Of a DNA stretch of 64,000 bases, positions 1-62,821 are shown in pieces (position 1 is the stretch's first letter; every line of letters begins with the position of its first letter). Source of the DNA: Legionella drozanskii LLAP-1. GTDB lineage: Bacteria; Pseudomonadota; Gammaproteobacteria; Legionellales; Legionellaceae. Under the pieces are notes generated by a model. That model was not told the DNA's origin, made no database searches, and was given only the letters and a program-made list of their open reading frames with translations. The translations under genes and the position numbers were made by a program. The stretch covers positions 202,669 to 266,668 of the forward strand of contig NZ_LNXY01000031.1 of the NCBI RefSeq assembly GCF_001467585.1, in the 5' to 3' direction.

Positions 1-644
1 CCACGCCCTTCTATCCTCGTAGTCCTTATGCCGTCGCTAAATTATATGCCTATTGGATTACGGTTAATTATCGCGAAGCTTATGGTATTTATGCTTGTAA
101 CGGTATTTTATTCAATCATGAAAGCCCCCTTCGTGGAGAAACCTTTGTTACTCGTAAAATTACTCGTGCTTTAGCACGGATTAAATTAGGGCTACAAGAC
201 TGCGTTTACCTCGGTAATCTCGACGCTTTAAGAGATTGGGGACATGCTCGCGACTATGTCGAAATGCAATGGCTAATGTTACAGCAAGACGAAGCTGAAG
301 ATTTTGTAATTGCTACAGGCGAGCAATACAGTGTACGTGAATTTCTTGAGACCGCTGCTGCCGAAATTGATCTTAAAATTACTTGGGAAGGTACAGGAGT
401 AGATGAAATTGGTATCGACCAAAATGGCAAAGTGATCGTACGAGTAGATCCTCGTTACTTTAGACCCGCAGAAGTAGCCACCTTGCTAGGTGATGCAACT
501 AAAGCGAGAGAAAAGCTTGGATGGGTGCCAACAACGAGCTTCCAATCTTTAGTTGCTGAAATGATGCGTGGAGATCTAAACGCTGCCAACCGCGATGAGT
601 TAGTAAAACGTCACGGATTTGCGGCCTATGATTACCACGAATAA
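1..644 (+). CDS. gmd: GDP-mannose 4,6-dehydratase, C-terminal part (5' end outside window)
   Basis: The reading frame is open from base 3, so the gene starts left of the window and only about 213 C-terminal codons are present; the internal ATG at 264 is not the start. The Y-A-V-A-K stretch at about 27-41 is the YxxxK catalytic motif of extended short-chain dehydrogenases. The following segment ([19 protein letters not shown]) is characteristic of Gmd. The enzyme converts GDP-mannose to GDP-4-keto-6-deoxymannose, the precursor of GDP-fucose, GDP-rhamnose and GDP-perosamine. It sits directly upstream of fcl, which uses this product, and its product could also feed the perosamine-type genes at 55-57 kb. 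Confidence 0.93.
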
Positions 645-19980: not shown

Positions 19981-22767
19981 TCAGAGTACAGGCTGCTCTG
20001 TCTCAGAGTTAGTTATGAATACAAAATCTAAATCTATCTCTCCTTCTCCCTTTTTGAGAGCGGGTAAAGTATAGGATTTTTCTTTAGCATAGGGTTCTAA
20101 CGATCTAAGAAGAGGACAAAGAGAAGCTTCGCTAATTTCTGCCTGCAAAACAAGGTTTTGCTTTAGCTCTATCATTGTTTTTTTATTAAGCTCTTTTCCA
20201 ACCTCTTGGCTTCTGAGATCCCCTTTATCAGTACTTTCTTTTTCCTCATCTCTTTTTTTCTTTATGTCTTTTTTCATCGCATCCAAAATGGTCTTAAATA
20301 ATAGTGGATTTAAAGAAGTTGAAGTCATTTCGCCTTCGGCAAAAATAAAGGCGAGAATTCTTTCGTTACTGAGACCAGGATTTTTTGCTTCATCAAAATA
20401 GCCTCGAACTGTCTCACCTCTAATACGATTAGTTAAGATATTCCGCCACCAAGGTCCTTCATAAGCGGATACTGTCTTTAAAACCAATTCTTGGAATTCA
20501 GATTTAGACAGTTTAGCGACCCACTCATACATATAATCCTGCAATAGAAAGATATTTCTTTTTGCATAAATATGAGCGAATCGTTCATCATTTAAAACAA
20601 ATTCTCTTGCTTTTTGCACATAAAAAAGGCTATCAAACTCATCCTTATTAAAGGCGGTGCGAACACTCAATAGATTCACATCAATTTGCTCTGTATCTGC
20701 AAGCATTTTTGGAATTAAATGGGCAATTAACTGTGTGTTTAATGAGTTAGATTTAAGACCACTTACACTCAAAATCGTTGCCAAACGATCGGCACCATTT
20801 TCCTTCACTGATTCTTCCAAAAAATCTAAAACTGGGTTTTTACGCCCACGATTGGCAGTCACATTATAGAAACTCGGCTCATAATCTTGCTCAATGATTT
20901 CTTTAACATATTTATCAAATTGACCTTCAGGAAGCTTTGATGTCCAATTAAATAATGCTGTTAAACAAGAGATTACTACTTCTTCTTCAGTATGCTTACG
21001 TTTTAATAAGGCAGGATAATCATGCAGCGCCTCTGCATTAAGCGATTGATCTTTTTCTAATGATAAATGTCGCTGAAAATTTAGTCCGCCATAAATACAC
21101 TGTAAGTCCTCAAAAAATTTGGTTAATTGACCCGACCAAACATTCAGTTCCTTATTGCCTAAAATTGAATCAATTTCTTTTTCACAATTCTGCACTAACT
21201 TGATCATCTCTTCGAGGAAGATATTATTTTTTTCTACAGTCAAATCCTCTTGATCTAAGTTTTTATAATCAGTGAACAGGATATGAAACTGTCCAAAAAA
21301 ATGCTCGAAACGAATCAGCGCTCGCAGCAAATTATGCTCTGGATGACAATCAATTTGCTGTGATTCATTAATTTCTTCAGGCTCTCCTAAGAGCATCCAA
21401 GCTTTAGTTATTTCTTGATCTTCTCCCTCCAGGCGCGCTTTTTTAGGCATGGGAATGGGCACCATTCTAAGCTCATTCGCCAAGTTATTAGCTAGAATTT
21501 TCGCTTCTTCTATAACTGAGCTCAAAATTGGAACATGCGAATCTCGCCAAAATTTATGGTAATTCTTTTTCATCCGCTCCAAGTCATAGCGACCTTCTGG
21601 AGCCACATCATAAGCATTGAGAATGGGTTGTGAAGATTGGGGTTTCAAATCTTCATGTATTTTAATTTTTTGCGCCCTGGCTTCCATTTTTTGATTCTGG
21701 TTAGCTGCCCACTCCTGTATTTTTTTATACGCCGAAGGCTTATTACGTAAAAACTTGGCAAATCCGGATACCGGAATGCCATATTCGTTTTCTTCACAGC
21801 CCTGGTAATAAACCACTTCCGAACGAAATTCATCATATTCATTTTGAAAAACTCTAACCATATGATCAACAAACGATTTGTTATCGGTTTCGCTATTAAA
21901 TAGGAGGGGATATTCTCGCTCATAATCAAGCTTTGAAGAAAGAGAACTATAATCAAGAGGTAAATCACCTAGATATTCTTTAAGGCGTACACGCAGCATT
22001 TCTGGATCAAAACTAAGTAATTCTTTTAACAAAGCTTCAAACATTTGCTCCTGGAATTCAATTGAACCAGCTAAGGCTTGAAATGCCTCGGCCGCCTGAT
22101 AATGTTTATAATAATTAAAATTTCCAGGGATAGTATTTGCTGGCCAATGGGTTCTATTTAGCACATTAGGAAAAGTATCTAATTCCTCTGCTTTTAAACG
22201 CATCCCCTTTTTAGGTATGGGTTTGAGAATACCGTCAATATATCGGCCACCTTTCATTATGTGAGTAATGTGGTAGAGGATCATATCCCAATCTAGTAAG
22301 CCGAAAAGACTAAAATTATCGGGATGGCGATCGTCACATTTGTAACGCCATGCCGCGACTAATAGTTCAGCGACATTGTATTTAATAAGCGTTTCCTTAG
22401 AAGGACAAACGAGTTCTCTTTCCTTAGGATCAGTGGGAAGATTTTTGCCCGCACTTAACAAGGGTTTATAGCCAGGTAATTCAAAAGAGACTGTTCCCAG
22501 GATTTTCTTTCCTGTCTCATCAAAAACGAGTCGATCTTCGGCCGCTTTATCCCCTAAAGAAAGACGCAGCGCAACACTCGCAGCGACAGAGTATTTAGCT
22601 AATAGAGGGGGGTAATCATCGGCGATAGGCTTAAAATACGCGATCTGTTCTTGGCCATCAGCGTCAAATAATCGAACTTTTTTAACTTCATGGCCTGAGG
22701 GGGTAACTACTTGCCCTTCGAGGTATTGTAACTGACTAATATAGAGTGCCTTCGATGGCAGAGACAT
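19981..22767 (-). CDS. large protein with atypical lipid/protein kinase-like motif, candidate effector (MavQ-like)
   Basis: The ATG at 22767 follows AGGAAGAG at five bases; the upstream TTG at 22785 lacks such a site. The 928-residue protein has an N-terminal region with kinase features: YFKP (candidate ATP-binding Lys46), DDRHPDNF near residues 145-152 (catalytic-loop pattern as in PI3/PI4-kinases) and LLDWDM near 157-162 (metal-binding D.D, in the position of DFG). The remaining 700 residues are helical and charged, without signal peptide or membrane segment. From memory this resembles the Legionella effector MavQ, an atypical PI 3-kinase; the match is at motif level only. Confidence 0.68.
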   Translation of the reverse strand: MSLPSKALYISQLQYLEGQVVTPSGHEVKKVRLFDADGQEQIAYFKPIADDYPPLLAKYSVAASVALRLSLGDKAAEDRLVFDETGKKILGTVSFELPGYKPLLSAGKNLPTDPKERELVCPSKETLIKYNVAELLVAAWRYKCDDRHPDNFSLFGLLDWDMILYHITHIMKGGRYIDGILKPIPKKGMRLKAEELDTFPNVLNRTHWPANTIPGNFNYYKHYQAAEAFQALAGSIEFQEQMFEALLKELLSFDPEMLRVRLKEYLGDLPLDYSSLSSKLDYEREYPLLFNSETDNKSFVDHMVRVFQNEYDEFRSEVVYYQGCEENEYGIPVSGFAKFLRNKPSAYKKIQEWAANQNQKMEARAQKIKIHEDLKPQSSQPILNAYDVAPEGRYDLERMKKNYHKFWRDSHVPILSSVIEEAKILANNLANELRMVPIPMPKKARLEGEDQEITKAWMLLGEPEEINESQQIDCHPEHNLLRALIRFEHFFGQFHILFTDYKNLDQEDLTVEKNNIFLEEMIKLVQNCEKEIDSILGNKELNVWSGQLTKFFEDLQCIYGGLNFQRHLSLEKDQSLNAEALHDYPALLKRKHTEEEVVISCLTALFNWTSKLPEGQFDKYVKEIIEQDYEPSFYNVTANRGRKNPVLDFLEESVKENGADRLATILSVSGLKSNSLNTQLIAHLIPKMLADTEQIDVNLLSVRTAFNKDEFDSLFYVQKAREFVLNDERFAHIYAKRNIFLLQDYMYEWVAKLSKSEFQELVLKTVSAYEGPWWRNILTNRIRGETVRGYFDEAKNPGLSNERILAFIFAEGEMTSTSLNPLLFKTILDAMKKDIKKKRDEEKESTDKGDLRSQEVGKELNKKTMIELKQNLVLQAEISEASLCPLLRSLEPYAKEKSYTLPALKKGEGEIDLDFVFITNSETEQPVL

Positions 22768-22909
22768 AGCTCTTCCTAATTCCAAATCCTTGAATAATTC
22801 ATATTAATCAGAAATGAGATGCCAGTTCAATAGTATTAATAAAAGCTAAACTGCATTTACATGAAATAAATTGTAAATTCGCTGGCCAAAATTGAAGGTT
22901 TGATAACGC

Positions 22910-44690: not shown

Positions 44691-46031
44691 TTATTTACCA
44701 ATACAAAAGCTAGAGAAAATGCGCCCCAATAAATCATCTGAAGAAAATTCCCCAGTAATTTCGCATAAGGCTTGATGGGCAAGGCGTAAATCTTCGGCAA
44801 GTAATTCACCGGCTCTTAACTCAGTGAGTTGTAATTGGCCGGCAAGCAAAAAAGCTTTCGCTTGATCCAAGGCTTGTAAATGACGTCGGCGGGCTAAGAA
44901 CAGCCCCTCCGCTGGTTGATAACCGACTAGTTCTTTAATTTTTTCCTTTAAGGCCTCTAATCCTTGTCCTGATTTCGCAGAAAGGAAGACCTTATTTTCT
45001 TCGGTTGTTGGTTTTATATTGCTTACATCAATTTTATTAAAGATCTGAATAATAGGGACTGAGGGGGGTAGCGCAGTCTTAATTTCTTCACTTAACTCAG
45101 TGCAAACTGGGCTATTTACATCGATAACCATTAACAGACAATCAGCGCGGCTCACTTCTTGCCAAGCACGTTTGATACCTTCTTTTTCAACAAGATCGTC
45201 ACTTTCTCTTAGACCGGCGGTATCAACGAGATGTAAAGGAATATCGTCGAGCAAAATATGTTCTCGCATTACATCCCTTGTCGTGCCAGCCACATCGGTC
45301 ACAATTGCGACGTCGCGTCCCGCTAAACAATTGATTAAAGTAGATTTTCCGGCGTTAGGGCGACCAGCAATAACCACCGATAAACCTTCGCGTATAATTG
45401 CCCCCTGGCTGGCATTCGTACGAATATCACTTAGTTCCTGCAATACGTCATTTAACATAGCGGCGACTTTACCGTCACTTAGGAAATCAATTTCCTCTTC
45501 TGGAAAATCAATGGCAGCTTCAACAAATAATCGTAAATGAATAAGTTTTTCATTGAGTTCGTTGATTCTTTTGGAAAAGTCACCTTGAAGCGATCGGACT
45601 GCCATGCGTGCAGCGGTTTGAGAACTTGCATGAATTAGATCAGCGATTGCTTCGGCTTGGGTTAAATCGATCTTGTCATTAAGAAAAGCACGCTCTGAGA
45701 ATTCGCCAGGTCTTGCTAACCGTGCACCTAAAATCACCGTTTCATTCAATAGATTATCTAAAACTACAGGTGCACCATGTCCCTGAAATTCAACCACATC
45801 TTCGCCGGTGAAAGAGTGTGGCGCTTTAAAATAAATCATTAGCCCATTATCAAGTATTTCATTCTGCGAATTAATAAAGGAACAATAAGTCGCTAATCGT
45901 GGGCTAAGAGTTTTATTGCCGTTAAGTAGTAGCGCGATGGGGTACGCTTTGGGACCAGAAAGTCGCACAATCCCCACTCCACCGCGACCGGGTGGAGTGG
46001 CAATTGCTACGATTGTATCATTTTGCATCAT
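44691..46031 (-). CDS. mnmE: tRNA modification GTPase MnmE
   Basis: The 446-residue protein has an N-terminal folate-binding domain ([20 protein letters not shown]), helical domain and embedded G domain: GRPNAGKST near 225-233, DVAGTTRD near 250, DTAGLRE near 270 and NKID near 333. It ends in the diagnostic FCIGK, whose Cys is essential. With MnmG it installs the carboxymethylaminomethyl group at wobble U34. E. coli MnmE is 454 residues. Its start overlaps the end of yidC by 14 bases. Confidence 0.97.
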
Positions 46032-47709
46032 TTGCTGAAATTAGGGTTTTCTTCTTGGGGCGATCATCGCTGTACTTACGGGTAATGTACCATTGTTGCA
46101 AGATTGACAGCGCATTGTTGACTATCCAGTATAAAACCAATCCTGCTGGAAAATTCCAAAACAACGCGGTAAACAAGATAGGTAAAAACATCATGACTTT
46201 TGCCTGCATCGGATCAGGTGGTGCAGGGTTTAAACGCTGTTGAATCAACATCGTTGCGCCCATGATAATCGGTAAAATATGATAGGGATCAGCCACAGCT
46301 AAATCTTTTATCCAGAAAATAAAAGGAGCTTGTCTTAATTCCACACTTTCTAATAACACCCAATAAAGAGCAATGAATACAGGAATTTGAATCAGGATAG
46401 GTAGGCATCCACCTAAAGGATTGACCTTTTCCTGACGATACAGCTCCATGGTTGCCTGACTCATTTTAGCTTTGTCATCACCATGTCGTTCACGCAAGGC
46501 CTGCAATTTAGGTTGCAACTTACGCATACCTGCCATAGATTTATAGCTGGTAGCTGATAAACGATAGAAAGCCAGTTTAATCAACACAGTGACTAATACA
46601 ATCGACCATCCCCAATTCCCAACGACTGAGTGAATTGCTTTCATTAACGAAAACAAGAGTGATGATAAGAACCAGAGCCAGCCGTAATCAACAGTCAAGT
46701 CAAGTCCTGGTGAAATTTCTTTTAATTGAGAAGTAATTTCAGGACCAACGTATAAACTTGAACCAATCTCTTTCTGTGCACCAGGTTCTATAGTGAGAGG
46801 TTGGCTAACAGCTCCAATTGTATAATCACCGTCAGCAGCTCGCGTATAGAATAAATTATGGCTATCGCTTTTTGGAATCCAGGCACTGACAAAATAATGT
46901 TGCTGCATAGCAATCCAGCCACCTTGCGCATTCACATCCAGATTTGCCTTAGTCATGTCCTTAAAATTAACTTTTTTGTAACGTTGTTGTCCGGGATTAG
47001 AGTAGGAAGCGCCGGTATAAGAACCAACATGGAAAATACTCGATTTATCTTCTTGTGGTGAAGTTCGCAACAACTGGGTATTCATATACCCTTTCCAAGG
47101 GGTTGTTCCTTGGTTATCGATTACATAGTTCACTTGAACCAAATAACTGCCTTTGGTGAAAGTAAATTCTTTTTTGACGGCTAAGCCCTCAGCTGTTTTA
47201 CCGTTTAAAACCACTACTAACTTATCTTGACCCGGAGCCAATTGATATTGCTGTTGAGCAGAGGTAAAGCCAAAATCAACATGTTTTACCTGGTTATTAT
47301 TAGTAAATAAACTAGAGTTCGCAACGTAACGTTCACCTGCTTGATTTTGTAAAAGGGTTATTGGCTTATCTTTTTCATCGACACTCACAGGATAATCAAG
47401 TAATTGCGTATTGATTATGTCGCCTTGCTGCAAATCGATGCTTAAATCAATCACATCGGTTTTCACGCGAATAGGCTGGGTGCTTGGGGAGTTCGTCAGT
47501 GAGGTGTTTTGTTCAGGAGCCACTTCTTGATTTGGTTGATTATTCGGAGTGTTAGTCAGATTGGGCAATAGGCTACCTTGATTAGCAGTCGCTGTTGTTT
47601 GACTTGTTAATTGGCGGGGAGTTGGCGGATAATCATGCTGCCAATTCATCCAGAGGGAATAGATAACCAGCGCCAAAGCTGCGTACAAAACTACACGTCG
47701 TATATCCAT
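46018..47709 (-). CDS. yidC: membrane protein insertase YidC
   Basis: The 563-residue protein has an N-terminal membrane helix (residues 7-20), a linker rich in Gln, Asn, Pro and Thr, the large periplasmic beta-sandwich domain and the conserved C-terminal insertase core with about five helices (from [29 protein letters not shown] near 362). The core includes the hydrophilic-groove arginine in KLAFYRL-type context. It inserts membrane proteins alone or with SecYEG. E. coli YidC is 548 residues. It lies in the rpmH-rnpA-yidD-yidC-mnmE order and starts at the yidD stop. Confidence 0.97.
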
Positions 47710-51553: not shown

Positions 51554-52593
51554 TTCTTGCTCAATTGCATATTCAAAATTTACGGAATATTCAATCCGAA
51601 CGATTTAATCTTCATCCTCATATTAATATCATTGCAGGACCAAATGGCTCAGGAAAAACATCGTTTCTTGAGTCAATTTATTTATTAGGAACTGGACATT
51701 CATTTCGCACGCGAGAAATTACTCCTCTCGTTAGTCATAATACAGATAGTTTAGTTGTATTCGCTCGAACCAATGATGAGCAATCCATTAGCATTCAAAA
51801 GTCGATCTCTTCCCCAACACAGGTTCGATTAAACAATTATCCTTGCCAGAGTAGCAGTGAACTCGCCCATTTCCTTCCTTGCCAGGTTTTTTATCAGGAT
51901 CTTTTTCAAATCATTGATGCGGGTCCCTCCACTCGTCGCAGTTTATTAGATTGGGGATTGTTTCACGTGGAACCTAGTTATCATCTTTTATGGAAAAATT
52001 ATCGACGATCGGTAAAACAAAGAAATAGTTTACTTCGACAAAGAACCAAACAAGAAATGGTTAAACCATGGGATTTAACTCTAGAACAGTTAGCCAATAA
52101 ACTTGACGTATTGCGAGCAGAATATTTTCGTAAATTAGATGAAGAATTTAAAAAAATTCTACCTAGATTAACCGATCTCGAATGTAGTTTAAGTTATTAC
52201 AAGGGTTGGGATAGAAAAGGGACTAATAAATCCTTATCGCAGATTTTAGCTGATTCCTTCCCGACAGATTTATCAAGACAATTTACTCAGTATGGGGCAC
52301 ATCAGGCTGATATAATAATTGAATCCCAGGATTATCGAGTTAAGCAATTTTTATCACGTGGACAACAGAAGATCATACTCATTGCATTAAAACTAGCTCA
52401 AACAATTTTGATGTCGCAGCCATGTGTTTTTCTTTGCGATGATTTGTCATCAGAACTGGATAGTAATCATCTTTCTTCACTTTTTGAGTTAATTACAACA
52501 ATAAAAGGCCAATTTTTTATAACGGCAATTGATATTAAATCATTGCCTCTGAATTTAGATTCGCAATCTTTTGTATCTTTTGCCCTGAGATAA
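51550..52593 (+). CDS. recF: DNA replication and repair protein RecF
   Basis: The 347-residue SMC-like ATPase has Walker A AGPNGSGKTS near residues 29-38, the signature FLSRGQQKIILIALKLAQ near 266-283 and Walker B CVFLCDDLSSELD near 290-302. With RecO and RecR it loads RecA at gaps. It overlaps dnaN (ATGA). In close relatives gyrB follows directly; here gyrB is 7.8 kb away. The codons for LFHVEP at 51957-51974 include a parS-like sequence. Confidence 0.96.
   Translation: MILAQLHIQNLRNIQSERFNLHPHINIIAGPNGSGKTSFLESIYLLGTGHSFRTREITPLVSHNTDSLVVFARTNDEQSISIQKSISSPTQVRLNNYPCQSSSELAHFLPCQVFYQDLFQIIDAGPSTRRSLLDWGLFHVEPSYHLLWKNYRRSVKQRNSLLRQRTKQEMVKPWDLTLEQLANKLDVLRAEYFRKLDEEFKKILPRLTDLECSLSYYKGWDRKGTNKSLSQILADSFPTDLSRQFTQYGAHQADIIIESQDYRVKQFLSRGQQKIILIALKLAQTILMSQPCVFLCDDLSSELDSNHLSSLFELITTIKGQFFITAIDIKSLPLNLDSQSFVSFALR
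51959..51974. other. parS-like sequence inside recF
   Basis: TGTTTCACGTGGAACC matches the parS consensus TGTTTCACGTGAAACA at 14 of 16 positions and keeps the central TTTCACGTGGAA symmetry. It encodes part of a conserved RecF segment (FHVEP), so the match may be partly coincidental. Confidence 0.45.
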
Positions 52594-52601
52594 GAAACAA
52601 G

Positions 52602-52617
52602 TGTTTCACGTGAAACA
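52602..52617. other. parS centromere site
   Basis: TGTTTCACGTGAAACA is a perfect 16-bp palindrome identical to the chromosomal parS consensus bound by ParB. It lies 9 bases after the recF stop, in the origin-proximal zone where parS sites normally cluster. parA and parB are not in the window. Confidence 0.9.
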
Positions 52618-52900
52618 CATGCTAAAGAAAAAATTGCTATTCGTTTAGGATAAATTCAAATGTCGGCAAACACAGAACAAAAATCAATCCTGTGTTCGCG
52701 ACACAACAACCAACCAGTAGATAGGTTTACATCAATGGTATGTTCATCAATGATATGAAACATTTTCTACCATTTCTAACTCCAACTGTATAATAAAACT
52801 CCTAAATTTTTGCCAAACTAGAGACAGACTACTTTTAATTGACATGTCTCTATCGCAGAGATTAAAATGGCCTGATTTTTGTCAATATCAAGGTGTTTTA
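52618..52900 (+). promoter_or_regulatory. upstream region of the polysaccharide island
   Basis: This gap lies between parS and the exporter genes. A small hairpin is formed by AACACAG and CTGTGTT around 52669-52696. A TATAAT at 52789-52794 is a candidate -10 for the downstream genes, but no good -35 is present at 16-18 bases. No transposon end or direct repeat marking an insertion was seen. Confidence 0.35.
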
Positions 52901-53701
52901 ATGGGAACAGGCTCAATAAATATTGCCTTATCAGATATTGCCGCTGCCACTAAGCGTTACTCTCTATTAAGAATATTGGGGTGGCAGGATATCCGTCAGC
53001 GCTATAGACGTTCGGCCTTAGGACCTTTCTGGTTAACAATCAGTATGGGCATAATGATCGGCACCATTGGTGTCGTGTTTGGGCAAATTTTTAACTCTTC
53101 TCTCAGAGAATTTTTACCGTTTTTATCGATTGGTATTATCCTTTGGGGTTTTTTTTCTGCGATTATTACAGAAGGATGTACCGGATTTATAACAGCAGAA
53201 GGAATTATTAAACAACTCCCTCTTCCTTTATTTGTCCATATCTTGCGTATGATTTGGAGAAATGTGCTGATTTTAGGACATAATATTCTTATTTTTCCCT
53301 TAGTACTTTTAGTCGTAGGGAAACCTTTACACTTAGTTGCGCTGTTAAGCATTCCTGGATTTTTGCTGGCTTTAACAAATCTTATTTGGGTAGCTCTTCT
53401 TTTAGCGACTATTTGCACTAGGTATCGTGATTTTGCACAAATAATTTCGAGCATGCTACAAGTCATTTTCTATTTAACTCCAATTATGTGGATGCCAAAT
53501 CTCTTACCTCCTGGTAAGAGTTATTATTTTTTAGAATTGAATCCTGTAAATCATTTATTTGAAATTATTCGTGCTCCATTACTCGGTCAGGCTCCTGCCT
53601 TAACGAATTGGATCGTATCAATAATTTTAGCGTTCGTCGGATGGAGTGCGACTCTAGTCATCTTTAGTCGTTATAAGCGCCGCATCGCCTACTGGTTATA
53701 A
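52901..53701 (+). CDS. polysaccharide ABC exporter permease (Wzm type)
   Basis: The ATG at 52901 has AAGGTG five bases upstream and gives 266 residues, the usual Wzm size; ATG 52844 in frame adds 19 residues without a ribosome binding site. GWQDIRQRYRRSALGPFWLTISM near residues 27-50 is the classic entry to the ABC-2 membrane domain, followed by six hydrophobic segments. It forms the inner-membrane channel exporting an undecaprenyl-linked O-polysaccharide with the ATPase encoded 12 bases downstream. Confidence 0.9.
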   Translation: MGTGSINIALSDIAAATKRYSLLRILGWQDIRQRYRRSALGPFWLTISMGIMIGTIGVVFGQIFNSSLREFLPFLSIGIILWGFFSAIITEGCTGFITAEGIIKQLPLPLFVHILRMIWRNVLILGHNILIFPLVLLVVGKPLHLVALLSIPGFLLALTNLIWVALLLATICTRYRDFAQIISSMLQVIFYLTPIMWMPNLLPPGKSYYFLELNPVNHLFEIIRAPLLGQAPALTNWIVSIILAFVGWSATLVIFSRYKRRIAYWL

Positions 53702-53713
53702 GAAAGAAAAGCT

Positions 53714-54457
53714 ATGGCTTCTATTGAATTTAATAATGTTAGTGTTGATTTCCCTATTTACAATACTAATAGTCGATCGCTTAAAAAACGATTGATGCAG
53801 GTTGCAACGGGTGGTCAGTTGAATGCAACTGAACAGGGAGTTGTTGTTGTTCGCGCATTAGAAGGTTTAAATTTTACTTTGAATGATGGCGATCGTGTTG
53901 GACTAGTTGGTCATAATGGTGCTGGAAAAAGTACTCTACTTCGCCTACTAGGTGGGGTCTATGAGCCATCCAGCGGTAGCATTCTGACTAAAGGTGATAT
54001 TGGTTCACTTATTGATATTTCTCTGGGTATTGATCATGAATCAACCGGTAGAGAAAATATTTATGTTCGTGGCGGTCTTCTGGGAATGACAAGAGCAGAG
54101 ATTAATAAACATCTTACTGATATAATTGAATTTTCTGAATTGGGTAATTTCATTGATGTGCCGGTGCGTACCTATTCGACAGGGATGCATCTTCGCTTAG
54201 CGTTTGCTGTATCAACAATCCTACGTCCAGAAATTTTAGTAATGGATGAATGGCTTTCAGTCGGCGACGAAAATTTTAAACGCAAAGCAGAAAAGAGAAT
54301 GGAAGAAGTTGTTCAAGCCACAAATATTCTTGTCGTTGCGAGTCACTCTCGTGAGCTGATTTTAAATCTATGCAATAGAGTGATTTGGCTTGAACATGGA
54401 AAAATTAAGATGGATACTGATCCCCAGTCAGCAGTGGAAGCTTATTTTGGCGTATAA
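53714..54457 (+). CDS. polysaccharide ABC exporter ATPase (Wzt type, short form)
   Basis: The 247-residue ATPase has Walker A GHNGAGKST near residues 66-74, signature YSTGMHLRLAFA near 154-165, Walker B EILVMDEWL near 173-181 and the switch His in VVASHSREL. It ends soon after the nucleotide-binding domain and lacks the C-terminal carbohydrate-binding domain of long Wzt proteins. In that respect it resembles exporters that do not require a chain-terminating modification for recognition. It pairs with the upstream permease. Confidence 0.92.
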   Translation: MASIEFNNVSVDFPIYNTNSRSLKKRLMQVATGGQLNATEQGVVVVRALEGLNFTLNDGDRVGLVGHNGAGKSTLLRLLGGVYEPSSGSILTKGDIGSLIDISLGIDHESTGRENIYVRGGLLGMTRAEINKHLTDIIEFSELGNFIDVPVRTYSTGMHLRLAFAVSTILRPEILVMDEWLSVGDENFKRKAEKRMEEVVQATNILVVASHSRELILNLCNRVIWLEHGKIKMDTDPQSAVEAYFGV

Positions 54458-54483
54458 TCGTAATATTTTTTACATGGATAATA

Positions 54484-55194
54484 ATGAACAAAGCATACCG
54501 AAAAAGGACTGAAATTGGCGTTGCGTTTTCATCAGGTTTAAACTGTTTACTAAGCAAAGAGATAGCTATTAACCATGAGCAACAAAATCCACTATCTTTA
54601 GGTGGATATCATGACCCTGAGACCTTTTTTTATCGCACAAAATTAAAAAAAATGCTGCGACCAATGATTCGGTCAATATACCGCAGTTTGAAGCAAATCA
54701 TTAGACCAATTACTTTTAGAGTACATCATTATTTTACTGCAGAATTAAATCAAAGGTGTATGCACCTACAAAGCATGACGATTATTCTCCAGCAATCGCT
54801 CGAGACGATGAAGCAGGAGATGCAGCAAATATCAACCTTTATCAATGTGCAAAATAAACAAATACTTGCATCCCAATGTATAAAAAAAAGAAATGAATCC
54901 AGTTCACTAAATCGTAAAACTCAAGCAGAGATAGAAAGTTTTAGGGCTATTCTCATAAATAATCCCAATGTTGCACTTATTGTAGAATTTGATCAATCAC
55001 ATCTTAAGCGTACTAACCACAGTACAAAACAGTGGCTTAAAGCATTTGAAGATTTGAATTTATGTTATAAAGTCATTAACGAAAAAACAAAGGCTCTCGA
55101 AGATTGCTCTGTTTGGCAATTAGAAAATAGAGAATCGGCAAATCTTTTCTTTGCCCGTAAAAATTCAACTGCTTGGGAGAAAACAGCAGTATGA
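54484..55194 (+). CDS. probable remnant of a FkbM-type methyltransferase
   Basis: The 236-residue protein has a basic amphipathic N-terminal part (FYRTKLKKMLRPMIRSIYRSLKQ), a helical linker and a C-terminal piece (NNPNVALIVEFDQSHLKRT ... SANLFFARK) that looks like the end of a FkbM/Methyltransf_21 domain. The SAM-binding Rossmann core expected between them, with its GxGxG-type loop, is missing. I infer an internally deleted methyltransferase; a different short protein cannot be excluded. A second ATG at 54475 opens another frame that ends after 12 codons. Its stop overlaps the acetyltransferase start. Confidence 0.6.
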   Translation: MNKAYRKRTEIGVAFSSGLNCLLSKEIAINHEQQNPLSLGGYHDPETFFYRTKLKKMLRPMIRSIYRSLKQIIRPITFRVHHYFTAELNQRCMHLQSMTIILQQSLETMKQEMQQISTFINVQNKQILASQCIKKRNESSSLNRKTQAEIESFRAILINNPNVALIVEFDQSHLKRTNHSTKQWLKAFEDLNLCYKVINEKTKALEDCSVWQLENRESANLFFARKNSTAWEKTAV

Positions 55195-55865
55195 AAAAAG
55201 GTATTATTATCATAGGTGCTGGTGGTCATGCTAAAGTGTGCATTGAGTTATTGCGTTCGATGGGTGAAGAAGTTAGTTTTTGCATTGGGAACGATGGATC
55301 TGCCGATTTATGTTTAGATATACCTGTTTTACAGGGAGATAATCATCTGAACATTCTACATGAAGAAGGTTATTCACGAATATTTATTGCAATTGGTTCA
55401 AATTATTTAAGAGAACGTCTGGCAACTATGGCAATGAACGAGGGATATATATTAGTGAATGCGATTAGTCCTCAAGCTATTATTTCTCCCAGCGCTCGCC
55501 TTGGTTCAGGTGTAGCAATCATGGCTGGCGTGGTGATAAACGCAGAAGCAAATATTGCAGATTTGGCAATTATCAACACAGGAGCAACGGTAGATCATGA
55601 TTGCCAAATAGCAAAGGCGGTACATATAGCTCCGCAATGCGCTTTAGCTGGCAACGTAAAAGTGGGAAGCCAAAGTTTTCTTGGTGTTGGCTCTAAGGTA
55701 ATTCCCGAAATTGAAATCGGCGAAAAAGTTATTCTTGGTGCTGGAACTGTAGTTATTTCAAACATAATAAATGGGGCGACGGCTGTTGGAGTCCCTGCGC
55801 GTATTATTAATAAATCAGTAGTAGGAAAGGAATGTCATGCAACGAATATCAGTCGCACAGCCTAA
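55191..55865 (+). CDS. sugar O/N-acetyltransferase, PglD/NeuD/PerB family
   Basis: The ATG at 55191 overlaps the preceding stop (ATGA) and gives 224 residues. A Rossmann-like N-terminal domain (IIIGAGGHAKVCIELL, residues 6-21) is followed by a left-handed beta-helix of hexapeptide repeats. TGATVDHDCQI holds the likely catalytic His136, and a C-terminal GVPARI ends the repeat region. The family acetylates 4-amino nucleotide sugars with acetyl-CoA. Next to a perosamine-synthase-like aminotransferase the best reading is GDP-perosamine N-acetyltransferase (PerB-like), but UDP-sugar specificity cannot be ruled out. Confidence 0.85.
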   Translation: MKKGIIIIGAGGHAKVCIELLRSMGEEVSFCIGNDGSADLCLDIPVLQGDNHLNILHEEGYSRIFIAIGSNYLRERLATMAMNEGYILVNAISPQAIISPSARLGSGVAIMAGVVINAEANIADLAIINTGATVDHDCQIAKAVHIAPQCALAGNVKVGSQSFLGVGSKVIPEIEIGEKVILGAGTVVISNIINGATAVGVPARIINKSVVGKECHATNISRTA

Positions 55866-56937
55866 ACTAGCGGGGAATGAACGCAAGTACGTACTTGACT
55901 GTTTAGATTCAAATTGGATTTCATCAAATGGAAAATACATTGGCGCATTTCAAGAGTCGTTTGCTAAGTTTTGTAATGTTAAACATGCGATAGCCACTAA
56001 CAATGGTACAACAGCATTACACCTGGCATTAGTGGCGCTCGATTTGCAACCTGGAGATGAGGTGATTATCCCCACTGTAACCTATATCGCCACAGCGAAT
56101 GCTGTTCGCTACTGTGGGGCTACTCCTGTCTTGGTTGATGTTTGTGAAGAAACCATGAATATTAATCCAAATGAAATCGAGAAAAAAATTACTGCAAAAA
56201 CTCGAGGCATCATTCCAGTCCATCTCTATGGTCACCCTGCCGATATGGAAGCAATTAATAAATTGGCAGATCAATATGGTTTATGGGTTGTCGAAGATGC
56301 TGCAGAAGCTCATGGTGCAGAAGTACTGGGTAGCAAAGTGGGTAGCTTAGGAACTTGTGCAGCCTTTAGTTTTTTTGGTAATAAAATTATTACTACCGGT
56401 GAAGGTGGTATGGTTACTACTAACAATGACGAGCTTGCTGATAAATTGAGACTATTTCGTGGGCAAGGCATGGATCCTAATCGCCGTTATTGGTTTCCAG
56501 TCATTGGCTACAACTATCGTATGACCAACATACAAGCAGCACTAGGCTTAGCACAAATGGAAACAATTGAACAGGCACTCTCGAGTAGAACTATTCTTGC
56601 TAGTTGGTATAACGACGCTTTACAGAACCTTAGTGACCAAATTGTGCTACCAATAGAACTTCCTTGGGCCAAGCATGTTTTTTGGATGTATACCATTTTC
56701 TTGAAAAAGGGTGGCGAATACGAACGAGATAGGTTAAGGCAACATATGGATGAAATGGGGATTGAAACGAGACCCGTGTTTTATCCTATGCATATACTGC
56801 CTCCCTATGCTGAAGATAAAGCATATCCAGTAGCCGATCTTTGGTCACTCCGAGGAATTAACCTGCCAATGCATCAAGATTTAACTCAAAATGATGTACA
56901 GCAAATTGTTAATGCTCTAGTAACTGCATTGAGATAA
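55837..56937 (+). CDS. DegT/DnrJ-family sugar aminotransferase, GDP-perosamine synthase-like
   Basis: The 366-residue PLP enzyme has NNGTTALHLAL near residues 55-65, VVEDAAEAHGA with the PLP-ring Asp154, and FFGNKIITTGEGGMV with the Schiff-base Lys183. The closest pattern I recall is RfbE/Per, which aminates GDP-4-keto-6-deoxymannose to GDP-perosamine using glutamate. Related enzymes act on UDP-4-keto sugars, so substrate is inferred from the pairing with gmd (left edge) and the adjacent acetyltransferase. It overlaps the acetyltransferase gene by 29 bases. Confidence 0.87.
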   Translation: MQRISVAQPKLAGNERKYVLDCLDSNWISSNGKYIGAFQESFAKFCNVKHAIATNNGTTALHLALVALDLQPGDEVIIPTVTYIATANAVRYCGATPVLVDVCEETMNINPNEIEKKITAKTRGIIPVHLYGHPADMEAINKLADQYGLWVVEDAAEAHGAEVLGSKVGSLGTCAAFSFFGNKIITTGEGGMVTTNNDELADKLRLFRGQGMDPNRRYWFPVIGYNYRMTNIQAALGLAQMETIEQALSSRTILASWYNDALQNLSDQIVLPIELPWAKHVFWMYTIFLKKGGEYERDRLRQHMDEMGIETRPVFYPMHILPPYAEDKAYPVADLWSLRGINLPMHQDLTQNDVQQIVNALVTALR

Positions 56938-56942
56938 AAATA

Positions 56943-57977
56943 ATGAAAATTGCATTATGTTCATCATTTGTTCCCTTTATTCAAGGAGGAGCTCGGAATA
57001 TTGTTGATTGGCTTGAACCTGTCCTTAAAGAGGCTGGTCATCAAGTCGAACGTATTTACCTTCCTCAACTTGATGCCCCTGATTTACTCTTCCAACAAAA
57101 GATGGCTTATCGCTGGGTAGATCTAAGTTCCGCAGATCGAGTTATTTGTTTTCGCCCTCCGGCTCATTTTATTCCACATCCCAACAAAATATTATGGTTC
57201 ATCCATCATATTCGCCCATACTATGATTTGTGGGACAGCCCATACCGAAGCTTCCCAAATAATAGTAAATACAGGGGTGTACGGGATGCATTACATCTAA
57301 TGGATACTGCTGTATTTAAAGAAGCAAATAAAATTTTCACTAACTCAAAAGTAGTTTCCAATCGATTAAAAACTTTCAATCAAATGGATAGCGAAGTTTT
57401 ATATCCTCCGGTATTTCAACCAGAACGATTTTATTGCAAAAACTATAATTCTGAAATTGTTTACTTTAGTCGCCTAGAACATCACAAACGACAACATTTA
57501 CTCGTTGAAGCAATGCAATATACCAAAACCTCTGCTCGTTTACGTTTATGCGGCGTTAGCTCTACTCCTGACTACTTGGAGAGCTTAATTGAATTAATTG
57601 AAGAACTCGACTTACAAGATCGGATCATAATGGAAAATCGTTGGATCTCAGAAGAAGAAAAAATAGAAATTTTATCTAATTGCTTGGCGACAGCTTATTT
57701 GCCTGTCGATGAAGATTCTTACGGTTATCCGAGCCTGGAATCTAGTCTTGCTTCAAAACCAATTCTTACAACCTCAGATTCCGGTGGGGTACTCGAACTT
57801 ATAAAAGATGGGGTCAATGGCTATATCACGGAACCCTCTCCTGAAGCTATAGCTGAGGCTATAGATAAACTCTATTTAGATCGAGATCATTCTAAGATAC
57901 TAGGAAATAATGCCCGAATTCGCTTAGATGAACTTAATATTTCTTGGTCTCATGTGTTAGAAAGGTTGCTAGCATGA
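56943..57977 (+). CDS. GT4-family glycosyltransferase (first of a tandem pair)
   Basis: The 344-residue GT-B protein opens with SFVPFIQGGARNIVDWL, the glycine-rich N-terminal loop, and has a C-terminal GT4 core: YFSRLEHHKRQHLLVEA near residues 179-195 and LPVDEDSYGYPSLESSLASKPILTTSDSGGVLEL near 257-290, containing the EX7E-type donor site. It is probably a mannose- or perosamine-type transferase in O-chain assembly. It shares many blocks with the next gene and ends overlapping it (ATGA). Confidence 0.88.
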   Translation: MKIALCSSFVPFIQGGARNIVDWLEPVLKEAGHQVERIYLPQLDAPDLLFQQKMAYRWVDLSSADRVICFRPPAHFIPHPNKILWFIHHIRPYYDLWDSPYRSFPNNSKYRGVRDALHLMDTAVFKEANKIFTNSKVVSNRLKTFNQMDSEVLYPPVFQPERFYCKNYNSEIVYFSRLEHHKRQHLLVEAMQYTKTSARLRLCGVSSTPDYLESLIELIEELDLQDRIIMENRWISEEEKIEILSNCLATAYLPVDEDSYGYPSLESSLASKPILTTSDSGGVLELIKDGVNGYITEPSPEAIAEAIDKLYLDRDHSKILGNNARIRLDELNISWSHVLERLLA

Positions 57978-59011
57978 AAGTACTTATTGTCAATAATATG
58001 GCTCCCTTCATCTGGGGAGGAGCTGAAGAATTAGCAGTTCATTTACAAAAAAATTTAATCATAGCTGGGCATCAGGCTGAAGTTCTGCGTATTCCTTTTC
58101 AATGGGAGCCTGCGGCACGAATTCCATCGCAAATGCTTATGGCTAGGGCATTTGAATTGTGGAATGTGGATCATGTGATTGCTTTAAAGTTTCCTGCTTA
58201 CCTGATTCGTCATCCTGAGAAAACTATATGGTTATTACACCAATATCGACAGGCCTACGATCTTCATGATGCAGGACAAACCAATATTTCAACAGACCAA
58301 GCAGGGGATGAGTTAAGAGCTTTAATTAAAGCGGCTGATGAAGAAACTTTCACTGAAAGTAGAAATATCTTCACTAACTCCGAAGTAACAAGACAGCGTC
58401 TACTCCATTACAATGGTATTAAGGCAGAAGTCCTTTATCCGCCTGTTAATGATCCAGAGATATTTACCAATAATGAAATAGGTGATTATATTTTTGCGGG
58501 AGGAAGAATAAATAACATGAAGCGGCAACATTTATTAGTTGAGGCTTTGAGTCACACGGATAGAGCTGTGAAATTACTTATTGCAGGTCCTCCTGATACG
58601 CCTGCTGATGCTGAACAACTTAAAGAAATGGTTGCAAGGTTAGGTTTAGAGGATAGAGTAAAGCTTGATTTGCGTTTTTTACCTCGAGCAACTTACGCTA
58701 AATATGTAAATGAATCGATGGCTGTGGCTTATTTACCCTTCGACGAAGATTCTTTGGGATATGTTGCTATGGAGGCTGCAATTGCGGGTAAGGCTTTGAT
58801 CACAACTACTGATAGTGGTGGCGTTTTGGGTTTGGCTAAGCATGAGGAAACTGGATGGATCGCTGAGGCAAAACCCTCTTCTTTAGCAGAGGTCATGAGA
58901 ACGGCAGTGAAGAGCATTCCACGTACTCGACAAATCGGACTTACAGCGAAAGAATTATGGTTGAGTCTTGGAATTAATTGGCCTCAAACAGTGGAGGCTC
59001 TATTGCAATGA
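57974..59011 (+). CDS. GT4-family glycosyltransferase (second of a tandem pair)
   Basis: The ATG at 57974 overlaps the previous stop and gives 345 residues. It starts MKVLIVNNMAPFIWGGAEELAVHL and shares FTNSEVTRQRL, EVLYPPV, KRQHLLVEAL and LPFDEDSLGYVAMEAAIAGKALITTTDSGGVLGL with its neighbour, so the pair looks like a tandem duplication that diverged. Differing acceptors for successive linkages would be a natural outcome. It overlaps the third transferase gene by four bases. Confidence 0.88.
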   Translation: MKVLIVNNMAPFIWGGAEELAVHLQKNLIIAGHQAEVLRIPFQWEPAARIPSQMLMARAFELWNVDHVIALKFPAYLIRHPEKTIWLLHQYRQAYDLHDAGQTNISTDQAGDELRALIKAADEETFTESRNIFTNSEVTRQRLLHYNGIKAEVLYPPVNDPEIFTNNEIGDYIFAGGRINNMKRQHLLVEALSHTDRAVKLLIAGPPDTPADAEQLKEMVARLGLEDRVKLDLRFLPRATYAKYVNESMAVAYLPFDEDSLGYVAMEAAIAGKALITTTDSGGVLGLAKHEETGWIAEAKPSSLAEVMRTAVKSIPRTRQIGLTAKELWLSLGINWPQTVEALLQ

Positions 59012-60309
59012 AATTAATACTCTTTACTCCAGTCCTTAAATCTTCGGCGATTGGCCGCATGGCGAGCTTGATTTCACGTAAATTGATTTCCTTTGGGCAC
59101 CAAGTCGTTGTAGTTCGGACAGAAGATGTGGGTTTCTATAATCATCCAATCCATGATTTTGGTACAGAGCCTATTTCTTGGTGTGATAATCATCAAGTAA
59201 ATTTAATGTATGAATCCGCTGATGGAGTTATTTACCAGATTGGGGATAACCATACTTTCCACCAAGGTTGCTTGACTTGGCTACCGCATATACCTGGAGT
59301 GGTCTGCCTTCATGATTTTTTTCTAGGAAATCTATTTAATGGCTGGGCTCAATACTGTCGCGCTGAGGCAAAAAATATACTTAAAACTTGGTATGGATCG
59401 GCTGCCAGCGACAGTTATTTCCAATACCAAGACATTGATTCGTTCATTGAGGGAACAAGAAATTGCTATCCTATGACGGAGTGGCTCTGTTCTATGGCGC
59501 AAGCGGTGATTACTCATAGTAGCTGGCAGATTGATCGGGTCTTAAATTCTTGCTCAGGCCCTGTTCAGGTCGTACCGCTCGCCTATGATGCCCCTGATCT
59601 TAGTACCGAACAAATTGAAGCTGGTGAAGAGAAAAGCAAAAAATTTTCTATATTAACTGTTGGGCATGTTAATAAGAATAAACGAGCAGCGAGTGTAATT
59701 AAGGCAATTGGTGCAAATCGGGCACTTCGAAAAAAAATAACCTATCAACTCGTGGGAGAAATATCTCCTGCAACGAGAAAGGAATTAACACGCTTAGCAA
59801 AAAAACAAAAGGTAAAGCTCATCATTTCAGGTAATATTGACGATGCAACTTTAATACAAGCTATCCTCCAAGCAGATCTTGTAACTTGTTTACGCTGGCC
59901 TGCCCTTGAAGCTGCTTCAGCCTCTACTATTGAAGCTTTGTTATATGGTAAAGCAACAATTGTAACCGACACTGGTTTTTATAGTGAAATTCCGAATGAA
60001 TACACTATAAAAATTAACCCAAATAATGAAATCGCTGAAATCGCTGCTGTATTAGAGAAACTTGAAAAAAATCCAGAGTTTTTCAAAGAATTAGGTATGC
60101 GAGCAAAAGCATGGGCAAGGGAAACCTTCACAGCTGATAATTATGCACTCAAACTAGTCGAATTAACACTTGCAACAACCAGAACCAACGTTGTGGCTAA
60201 TGCCGTCAATTATTTTGCCGAGATAATGTACGATTGGGGTGCTAAAACGGAATTATTAGGCAAAGAATACATCATGAAGCCGCTCGCAATTTTTGATGAA
60301 ATCTCGTGA
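59008..60309 (+). CDS. GT4-family glycosyltransferase
   Basis: The ATG at 59008 overlaps the previous TGA and gives 433 residues. It has the GT-B layout: N-terminal VLKSSAIGRMASLISRKLISFGH, a mid-region LHDFFLGNLFNGW, then the C-terminal GT4 domain with FSILTVGHVNKNKRAASVIKAI near residues 212-233 and AASASTIEALLYGKATIVTDTGFYSEIP near 301-328. It is more distant from the tandem pair. It is the last gene of the island before gyrB; donor and acceptor are unknown. Confidence 0.87.
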   Translation: MKLILFTPVLKSSAIGRMASLISRKLISFGHQVVVVRTEDVGFYNHPIHDFGTEPISWCDNHQVNLMYESADGVIYQIGDNHTFHQGCLTWLPHIPGVVCLHDFFLGNLFNGWAQYCRAEAKNILKTWYGSAASDSYFQYQDIDSFIEGTRNCYPMTEWLCSMAQAVITHSSWQIDRVLNSCSGPVQVVPLAYDAPDLSTEQIEAGEEKSKKFSILTVGHVNKNKRAASVIKAIGANRALRKKITYQLVGEISPATRKELTRLAKKQKVKLIISGNIDDATLIQAILQADLVTCLRWPALEAASASTIEALLYGKATIVTDTGFYSEIPNEYTIKINPNNEIAEIAAVLEKLEKNPEFFKELGMRAKAWARETFTADNYALKLVELTLATTRTNVVANAVNYFAEIMYDWGAKTELLGKEYIMKPLAIFDEIS

Positions 60310-60357
60310 ATCCTGCCATTCGTAACCAGATGAATCATATAAAAGAAACCTGATTAG

Positions 60358-60373
60358 TGCTATACTGTTTTAT
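60358..60373 (+). promoter_or_regulatory. candidate extended -10 promoter of gyrB
   Basis: TGCTATACT (60358-60366) is an extended -10 element; initiation near 60373 would give a leader of about 30 bases before ATG 60404. No good -35 is visible, as is usual for extended -10 promoters. This would let gyrB be expressed independently of the island. Confidence 0.5.
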
Positions 60374-60388
60374 TTGGTTAGCCACTAG

Positions 60389-62821
<2,433 letters not shown>

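What the first reader, a model, noticed from the sequence alone, without database searches (positions are those of the whole stretch)
52618..60357. O-polysaccharide island wedged between recF and gyrB
dnaA-dnaN-recF-gyrB is contiguous in L. pneumophila (from memory) and many gammaproteobacteria. Here about 7.7 kb encoding a Wzm/Wzt exporter, aminotransferase, acetyltransferase, three GT4 enzymes and a methyltransferase remnant separates recF from gyrB. The genes run in the replication direction with overlapping stops and starts, so they form one operon. Origin-proximal placement would raise gene dosage in fast growth. No transposase or flanking direct repeat was seen, so the insertion mechanism is open.
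Basis: partly seen in the sequence, partly recalled or inferred. Interest (0 to 1): 0.75.

Follow-up and report, generated by a model that had tools for sequence, protein, structure and literature searches.

The report
Relocated surface-sugar operon near replication origin
A set of genes that most likely builds and exports a coat of the sugar N-acetylperosamine has settled next to the chromosome's replication origin in a small group of Legionella species, where its export pump seems to have replaced the pump of the main surface-sugar locus.

Summary
Eight same-strand genes fill the 7,810 bp between recF and gyrB: wzm, wzt, a core-deleted fkbM, perB, perA and three GT4 genes. perA and perB have perosamine synthetase and perosamine N-acetyltransferase as best solved relatives, so the product is probably an N-acetylperosamine O-polysaccharide; the supply genes manC and gmd lie about 50 kb upstream. 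Two Pseudomonas and a Dyella carry the same cassette in the same order. The site is exact: between a parS-like sequence and the gyrB promoter. In the genus, wzm-wzt sits there in four species of one clade (one change on the tree); two keep the whole operon, two only wzm-wzt. So it is neither ancestral to the genus nor special to this genome. Unexpectedly, each of the nine species of this clade and its sister has either this exporter (five) or a different one, with a carbohydrate-binding domain, from the main LPS region (four), never both or neither. That suggests an exporter takeover, but only two independent contrasts support it. The fkbM remnant keeps an open, partly constrained frame. No mobile-element signature was found at the edges. 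Known parts, new arrangement.

The parts
52602..52617 (.). parS-like palindrome (recalled ParB-site consensus), left edge of the insertion
   Evidence: exact match in the window; 0-1 mismatch in the recF-gyrB gap of 20 of 20 genomes examined
52839..52868 (+). sigma-70-like promoter of the operon, 18-base spacer
   Evidence: 11 of 12 consensus matches, best of 21 in the region (the total of 21 is not above the shuffle mean of 24.9); conserved upstream of wzm in five species, including the copy at another locus
52901..53701 (+). wzm, polysaccharide ABC exporter membrane subunit
   Evidence: PF01061; best solved relative 9qfx_A (searched with alignment A1); dN/dS 0.056 against L. nautarum
53714..54457 (+). 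wzt, exporter ATPase, 247 aa, no C-terminal carbohydrate-binding domain
   Evidence: PF00005 only; best solved relatives 9qhw_C/9qfx_C; no PF14524, unlike wztB of G017
54484..55194 (+). fkbM-derived ORF without the methyltransferase core
   Evidence: ends align to an intact FkbM (PF05050) of G015 while the core is absent; model of moderate confidence with a long helix plus a small alpha/beta end
55191..55865 (+). perB-like GDP-perosamine N-acetyltransferase
   Evidence: best solved relative 4ea7 perosamine N-acetyltransferase, E 1.7e-62; TIGR03570 over cut-off
55837..56937 (+). perA-like GDP-perosamine synthase
   Evidence: best solved relative 3bn1 perosamine synthetase, E 6.8e-140
56943..57977 (+). 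GT4a glycosyltransferase
   Evidence: PF00534; found in 6 of 22 genus genomes, the same six that have this perA at 81% or more
57974..59011 (+). GT4b glycosyltransferase
   Evidence: PF00534
59008..60309 (+). GT4c glycosyltransferase
   Evidence: PF00534; no solved relative at E 1e-4
60340..60403 (+). conserved gyrB upstream/promoter region, right edge of the insertion
   Evidence: the AATCATATAAAAGAA...TATACT block resembles that of genomes without the operon
1..644 (+). 3' part of gmd (GDP-mannose 4,6-dehydratase), supply gene; manC lies just upstream outside the window
   Evidence: TIGR01472 over cut-off at G000:C31:202233-203249; ORF; manC TIGR01479 over cut-off

Best explanation
This is a self-contained operon for an N-acetylperosamine O-polysaccharide made by the ABC-exporter route. 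ManC and Gmd, encoded about 50 kb away, supply GDP-4-keto-6-deoxymannose. PerA aminates it and PerB acetylates it to GDP-N-acetylperosamine. The three GT4 enzymes build the chain on a lipid carrier, and Wzm/Wzt, which lacks a carbohydrate-binding domain, exports it. The operon carries its own promoter and entered, once, the gap between a parS-like site and the gyrB promoter in the common ancestor of four species (window species, L. nautarum, L. maceachernii, G013). In that clade the LPS locus lacks its own exporter pair, so this Wzm/Wzt probably became the general O-chain exporter. That would explain why two species lost all sugar genes of the operon but kept wzm-wzt under strong constraint. 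Shown: gene content, order, site, distribution, exporter mutual exclusion in nine species. Inferred: the sugar, the chain, the takeover.
For: Solved relatives: perosamine synthetase 6.8e-140, perosamine N-acetyltransferase 1.7e-62. gmd, over the curated cut-off, within 3 kb of the homologous genes in P. frederiksbergensis (L028), Dyella (L038) and a Legionellales MAG (L046). Same eight-gene order in L028, L029 and L038. Own promoter kept at both chromosomal sites where this wzm occurs. Insertion edges: parS-to-gyrB distance is 86-117 bp in 13 of 16 genomes outside the clade (207, 246 and 478 bp in the rest) and 2.5-8.4 kb in 4 of 4 inside it. One change on the species tree. Exporter exclusion: this wzm at 80-100% identity in G000, G014, G013, G011, G015; wzmB at 76-100% in G012, G016, G017, G018; no genome in both sets, none of the nine in neither. 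The LPS region reads GT398-wzmB-wztB-GT434 in G016 and G017 (G018 as far as its contig goes; G012 not fetched), whereas in all five of the first set both GT genes are there without the pair. wzm and wzt of the exporter-only species: dN/dS 0.06 and 0.015, the latter with saturated dS.
Against: NCBIfam's best model for PerA is LegC-family, below cut-off (355.8 of 420 bits), so the sugar is not proven. G018 has perA but no gmd over cut-off, only the Gmd-like gene (about 330 contigs), and gmd also occurs without this perA in five genomes over cut-off (G004, G006, G010 to G013 less those named; see full report), so it is no specific marker. The sugar-gene tree joins G000/G014 to G017/G018 rather than following the species tree (97/95; AU p 0.032, group tested after seeing the tree), so inheritance was not purely vertical. 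The exporter exclusion rests on two independent contrasts (sign test p 0.5), and G015 is a 91% complete MAG. Wzx flippases were not searched for genome-wide.
Confidence: 0.68

Rival explanations
1. The operon is a laterally acquired genomic island brought in directly at recF-gyrB by a mobile element.
For: Cassette relatives in Pseudomonas and Dyella; the operon's genes are missing from the gap in 16 of 20 genus genomes.
Against: No tRNA nearby, no shared flanking repeat, no integrase among the gap's ORFs; GC like the neighbours; the six Legionella sugar-gene sets form one clade at three different positions inside the genus, pointing to older entry and later moves. GT4a gave no match in the plasmid and phage collections at the limits used.
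Confidence: 0.15
2. The operon makes a different 4-amino-4,6-dideoxyhexose polymer (for example a LegC- or WecE-type product) or a capsule rather than an O-antigen.
For: DegT enzymes are hard to separate by sequence; NCBIfam top model is LegC below cut-off; Wzm/Wzt also match galactan and teichoic-acid exporter models below cut-off.
Against: Solved-structure ranking for both enzymes favours perosamine, and a nearby gmd in three other taxa fits a GDP-sugar.
Confidence: 0.2
3. The kept wzm-wzt in the two exporter-only species are leftovers in slow decay, not a functional takeover.
For: The partner genes are gone from the gap there, and this perA and GT4a from the genomes; only two contrasts for the exporter exclusion.
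Against: Both frames and the promoter are intact in both species; dN/dS 0.06 (dS about 1.1) and 0.015 (dS saturated); no other wzm in these two genomes by two queries.
Confidence: 0.12
4. The fkbM remnant is a plain pseudogene kept open by chance.
For: Its core is gone; middle region dN/dS about 0.6, whole 0.445.
Against: C-terminal 86 codons dN/dS about 0.22 (0.076/0.346); both frames are open although 15 residues differ in length; in a simple neutral simulation 1 of 2000 runs at 0.42 and 3 of 2000 at 0.21 substitutions per site stayed stop-free.
Confidence: 0.35

Closest known systems
Perosamine O-polysaccharide loci exported by Wzm/Wzt (Brucella wbk/wzm-wzt, N-formylperosamine; Caulobacter PerA/PerB, N-acetylperosamine; Vibrio cholerae O1 rfb with RfbT)
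   Same: Perosamine synthesis, ABC exporter pair, glycosyltransferases, a methyltransferase gene (the intact FkbM of G015 also matches the RfbT family weakly, E 1.4e-9). Brucella facts from passages of PMC9306315; the Caulobacter and Vibrio loci are recalled.
   Different: N-acetyl rather than N-formyl (inferred); gmd not in the operon; placed between a parS-like site and gyrB; methyltransferase core deleted.
Same eight-gene cassette in Pseudomonas frederiksbergensis 39A2, P. fluorescens HKI0770 and Dyella acidiphila 7MK23
   Same: Same genes in the same order; 63-78% identity for wzm, wzt, perB, perA, GT4a and GT4b, 45-50% for GT4c.
   Different: gmd lies within 3 kb in the two loci tested (L028, L038), fkbM keeps its core in the two Pseudomonas copies, and no recF or gyrB lies in the held 20 kb.
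L. pneumophila serogroup 1 wzm/wzt (lpg0772/0773)
   Same: O-chain exporter pair whose presence varies between relatives (passages of PMC3766260).
   Different: Lies inside the LPS locus; here the pair lies about 50 kb from the nearest LPS-locus genes, beside recF. The two were not compared by sequence here.

Membership tests
ABC-exporter-dependent O-polysaccharide pathway | Wzm-type membrane subunit with adjacent Wzt-type ATPase | tested here: met
ABC-exporter-dependent O-polysaccharide pathway | Wzt C-terminal carbohydrate-binding domain (present only in the terminus-recognising subtype, as recalled) | tested here: not met
   no PF14524 in wzt, present in wztB of G017; a subtype without it is known (recalled), so this does not exclude the pathway
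ABC-exporter-dependent O-polysaccharide pathway | Initiating transferase and O-antigen ligase in the genome | not tested
GDP-N-acetylperosamine pathway | PerA and PerB orthologues | tested here: met
   best solved relatives are perosamine synthetase and perosamine N-acetyltransferase; but PerA passes no NCBIfam equivalog cut-off
GDP-N-acetylperosamine pathway | GDP-mannose 4,6-dehydratase and GDP-mannose supply | tested here: met
   gmd and manC over cut-off in G000; gmd over cut-off in 5 of the 6 perA carriers, not in G018
GDP-N-acetylperosamine pathway | Product identified chemically | not testable with these tools
   none
Genomic island on a mobile element | Integrase/transposase in the insert, tRNA site or flanking direct repeats | tested here: not met
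   only the gap's ORFs and recF were scanned for families in this region
FkbM methyltransferase (PF05050) | SAM-binding methyltransferase core | tested here: not met
   no PF05050 match in the window ORF; core absent in alignment; intact in G015

The most novel reading that the evidence does not exclude
A movable sugar cassette planted beside the origin has displaced the O-antigen exporter of a whole clade: the LPS locus lost its terminus-reading exporter, and all O-chains now leave through the orphan pair between parS and gyrB, which later survived alone when its own sugar genes were lost. In the same cassette the capping methyltransferase has lost parts of its catalytic core in more than one lineage while its helical and C-terminal parts are kept, turning an enzyme into a structural or chain-length protein.
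Probability: 0.35. Interest if true: 0.62.

Novelty: new variant of a known kind. Interest (0 to 1): 0.45.

Why it matters
O-antigen genes usually sit in one locus with their exporter (recalled). Here exporter and locus have come apart, giving a natural experiment on how specific these exporters are and on whether a terminal cap must be read for export. It also predicts N-acetylperosamine surface chains in some Legionella species; of the 11 papers listed by the search for Legionella plus perosamine none appears, by title and abstract start, to be about such a chain. It shows that the parS-bearing recF-gyrB spacer holds different genes in different lineages.

Tried and rejected
Plasmid and phage origin: the GT4a protein gave no match in 72,556 plasmid records at E 1e-60 or 50,697 phage records at E 1e-20. 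Remnants of the sugar genes in the gaps of the two exporter-only species: the nucleotide matches below E 1e-3 (73 bp at 86%, 66 bp at 86%, 74 bp at 77%) are the gyrB upstream region; protein matches were at chance level. Remnants of the operon in the held LPS-locus stretches of the four-species clade (L121-L129): only DegT hits at 28-30% identity. Wider spread: GT4a at E 1e-100 in 3 of 369 class-level genomes, one being the window's own; Wzm at E 1e-60 in 13 of 140 family genomes, of which only the five named and G091 pass 1e-100. Origin-proximity as a general habit of this exporter: of 76 non-Legionella wzm loci, 3 (L032, L044, L050) also hold gyrB, 2 dnaA and dnaN; of the window's other genes a gmd fragment hits 12 loci, fcl 1, the two ORFs at 44691-47709 1, and those outside the operon none otherwise. 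The counts are small, many loci are cut by contig ends and all were picked by wzm similarity, so no claim is made. Family-wide gap list: 105 of 140 genomes had both genes on one contig, 31 were split or lacked one gene, and 4 of the 5 genomes without a recF hit (G039, G049, G062, G085) were left out of the typed list; of three gaps above 10 kb, two have the genes on opposite strands, so these are probably rearrangements. Papers: the listings (15 of 5,924; 15 of 21; 12 of 15) show no title on a recF-gyrB polysaccharide insertion or on perosamine in Legionella; I saw passages only of PMC7867332, PMC9306315 and PMC3766260.
Full report
WHAT IS THERE. The window is a stretch of a 3.56 Mb genome (G000). 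Between recF (stop at 52593) and gyrB (start at 60404) lie eight same-strand genes in 7,810 bp. Pfam, NCBIfam and solved-structure searches lead me to name them wzm, wzt, an fkbM-derived ORF, perB, perA and three GT4 glycosyltransferases. Two have telling solved relatives: PerA hits perosamine synthetase chains at 6.8e-140 (next class 5e-89), and PerB hits perosamine N-acetyltransferase at 1.7e-62, ahead of a pilin-glycosylation enzyme (2e-31) and the bacillosamine enzymes. Against this, PerA passes no NCBIfam cut-off; its top model, LegC-family, stays below it.

SUPPLY GENES. GDP-perosamine needs GDP-4-keto-6-deoxymannose (pathway recalled). The first 644 bases of the window are the 3' end of gmd (over the curated cut-off), followed by GDP-L-fucose synthase and preceded by manC. 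So the supply genes lie about 50 kb left of recF. gmd is over cut-off in 11 of 22 genus genomes: five of the six perA carriers (not G018) and six others (G004, G006, G010, G011, G012, G013), so it is not a specific marker. The neighbouring region also holds glucose-1-phosphate cytidylyltransferase and CDP-glucose 4,6-dehydratase (both over cut-off), an RfbH-like enzyme (below cut-off) and a thiamine-diphosphate enzyme. I read these as a yersiniose pathway (inference), which fits the yersiniose reported in L. micdadei and L. maceachernii LPS (passage of PMC7867332).

A CONSERVED CASSETTE. One scan of bacterial genomes with the Wzm alignment found 138 relatives, of which the best 80 were kept. 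P. frederiksbergensis, P. fluorescens HKI0770 and Dyella acidiphila carry all eight genes in the same order, and a Caballeronia symbiont contig carries wzm, wzt and pieces of the next three. gmd is over cut-off within 3 kb in the two of these that I tested (L028, L038) and near the perB-perA-GT4 part of a Legionellales MAG (L046). The other non-Legionella loci show wzm, nearly always with wzt, but no further cassette gene at E 1e-15 apart from a distant FkbM in L049; many are cut by contig ends. GT4a is rare: 3 of 369 class-level genomes, one being G000.

THE SITE. In 20 of 20 genus genomes examined the recF-gyrB gap holds a parS-like palindrome with at most one mismatch (the consensus is recalled). 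In 13 of 16 genomes outside the island clade it sits 86-117 bp before gyrB; the other three are at 207, 246 and 478 bp. In the four island genomes it sits 4-10 bp after the recF stop and 2.5 to 8.4 kb before gyrB, while the gyrB upstream block is kept at the far edge. The insertion is therefore between the parS-like site and the gyrB promoter. The operon has its own promoter-like sequence, TTGACA-18-TAAAAT, conserved also upstream of the wzm copy at another locus in G015. The flanks share no repeat beyond chance, and composition is like the neighbours'. Across the family, 105 of 140 genomes have both genes on one contig; 57 gaps are under 500 bp, 33 are 500-1500 bp, 12 are 1.5-10 kb and 3 are larger; G014, G000 and G011 are the longest under 10 kb.

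HISTORY. A RecF+GyrB tree puts the four species with wzm-wzt in the gap in one clade (A: G000, G014, G013, G011; 100/98) and five species in its sister clade (B: G012, G015-G018; 95/91). One change explains the location (G018, whose gap spans two contigs, was scored absent because one search found no close wzm in it, and G020 was not scored). In clade B, G015 has the full eight-gene cassette elsewhere with an intact fkbM; G016 has fkbM to GT4c, without wzm-wzt, at a locus sharing a flanking gene with G015 (by eye); G017 and G018 have fkbM to GT4c among other sugar genes, without wzm-wzt beside them. The six Legionella sugar-gene sets form one clade (100/100), but inside it G000/G014 pair with G017/G018, against the species tree (97/95; AU p 0.032, tested after seeing the tree). 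The five wzm-wzt pairs follow the species tree. So the cassette probably entered before clades A and B split, and moved, was traded or was trimmed later.

EXPORTER SWAP. The operon's Wzm has a close relative in 5 of 22 genus genomes (G000, G014, G013, G011, G015; 80-100%). A second exporter, whose Wzt in G017 has the Wzt_C carbohydrate-binding domain, is close in 4 of 22 (G012, G016, G017, G018; 76-100%). Each of the nine species of clades A and B has exactly one; G015 is a 91% complete MAG. The LPS region reads GT398-wzmB-wztB-GT434 in G016 and G017, and the same as far as the fetched stretch goes in G018; G012's was not fetched. In G015 the two GT genes are adjacent without the pair, and in all four clade A species both GT genes are present and the pair is not found at E 1e-8; in G013 a methyltransferase domain is fused to the second GT. 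wzm and wzt of the exporter-only species are under strong constraint (dN/dS 0.06; 0.015 with saturated dS). The simplest reading is that this exporter took over. Support is limited: two independent contrasts, sign test p 0.5, and flippases were not searched genome-wide.

THE FKBM ORF. The G015 copy is a full FkbM methyltransferase that also matches the V. cholerae RfbT family weakly (1.4e-9). In G000 and G014 the core is gone; in G016, G017 and G018 a smaller part of the core is missing; the two ends still align in all. The frame stays open: simple neutral simulations kept it stop-free in 1 of 2000 runs (0.42 substitutions per site) and 3 of 2000 (0.21). Its dN/dS is 0.445 overall, against 0.047-0.15 for the other operon genes, but about 0.22 for the last 86 codons. 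A model of moderate confidence (mean pLDDT 68.8, pTM 0.34, five sequences) shows a 90-residue helix and a small C-terminal alpha/beta unit. It may be a structural remainder or a slowly decaying gene; I cannot decide.

VERDICT. The arrangement, the exact parS-gyrB site and the exporter exclusion are what I take to be new here. In the Against line, the genomes with gmd over cut-off but without this perA are the six named under SUPPLY GENES.

Noticed in passing
L011:3151-4059 (-), L018:3168-4076 (-), L015:3522-4478 (+); also G002, G006, G021: Six genus genomes carry a 302-332 aa ORF in the same gap but on the other side of the parS-like site (between recF and parS). It has a GCQEHA stretch with later His and Asp (cysteine-hydrolase-like by eye); of three tested, two have no Pfam family and one a sub-threshold match. 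Three changes on the tree.
   Followed up: partly
L008:4951-9759 (-): The L. maceachernii gap also holds a PAS/histidine-kinase/receiver hybrid and two ORFs without Pfam family (339 and 437 aa) between recF and wzm.
   Followed up: partly
window:51959-51974 and relatives: A second parS-like sequence (0-2 mismatches) lies inside the recF coding region in the window and in the 19 relatives scanned.
   Followed up: no
L032, L044, L050: Three unrelated wzm-wzt loci (Methylobacter, Smithella and Hydrogenophaga MAG records) also hold gyrB within about 10 kb; chance or a habit of origin-near polysaccharide loci is open.
   Followed up: partly
L006:3221-4202: In L. nautarum the spacer before wzm holds two copies of a roughly 200 bp imperfect repeat (read by eye).
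   Followed up: no
window:14174-18061 and 19981-22785: Two large open frames (1295 and 934 aa), not examined.
   Followed up: no
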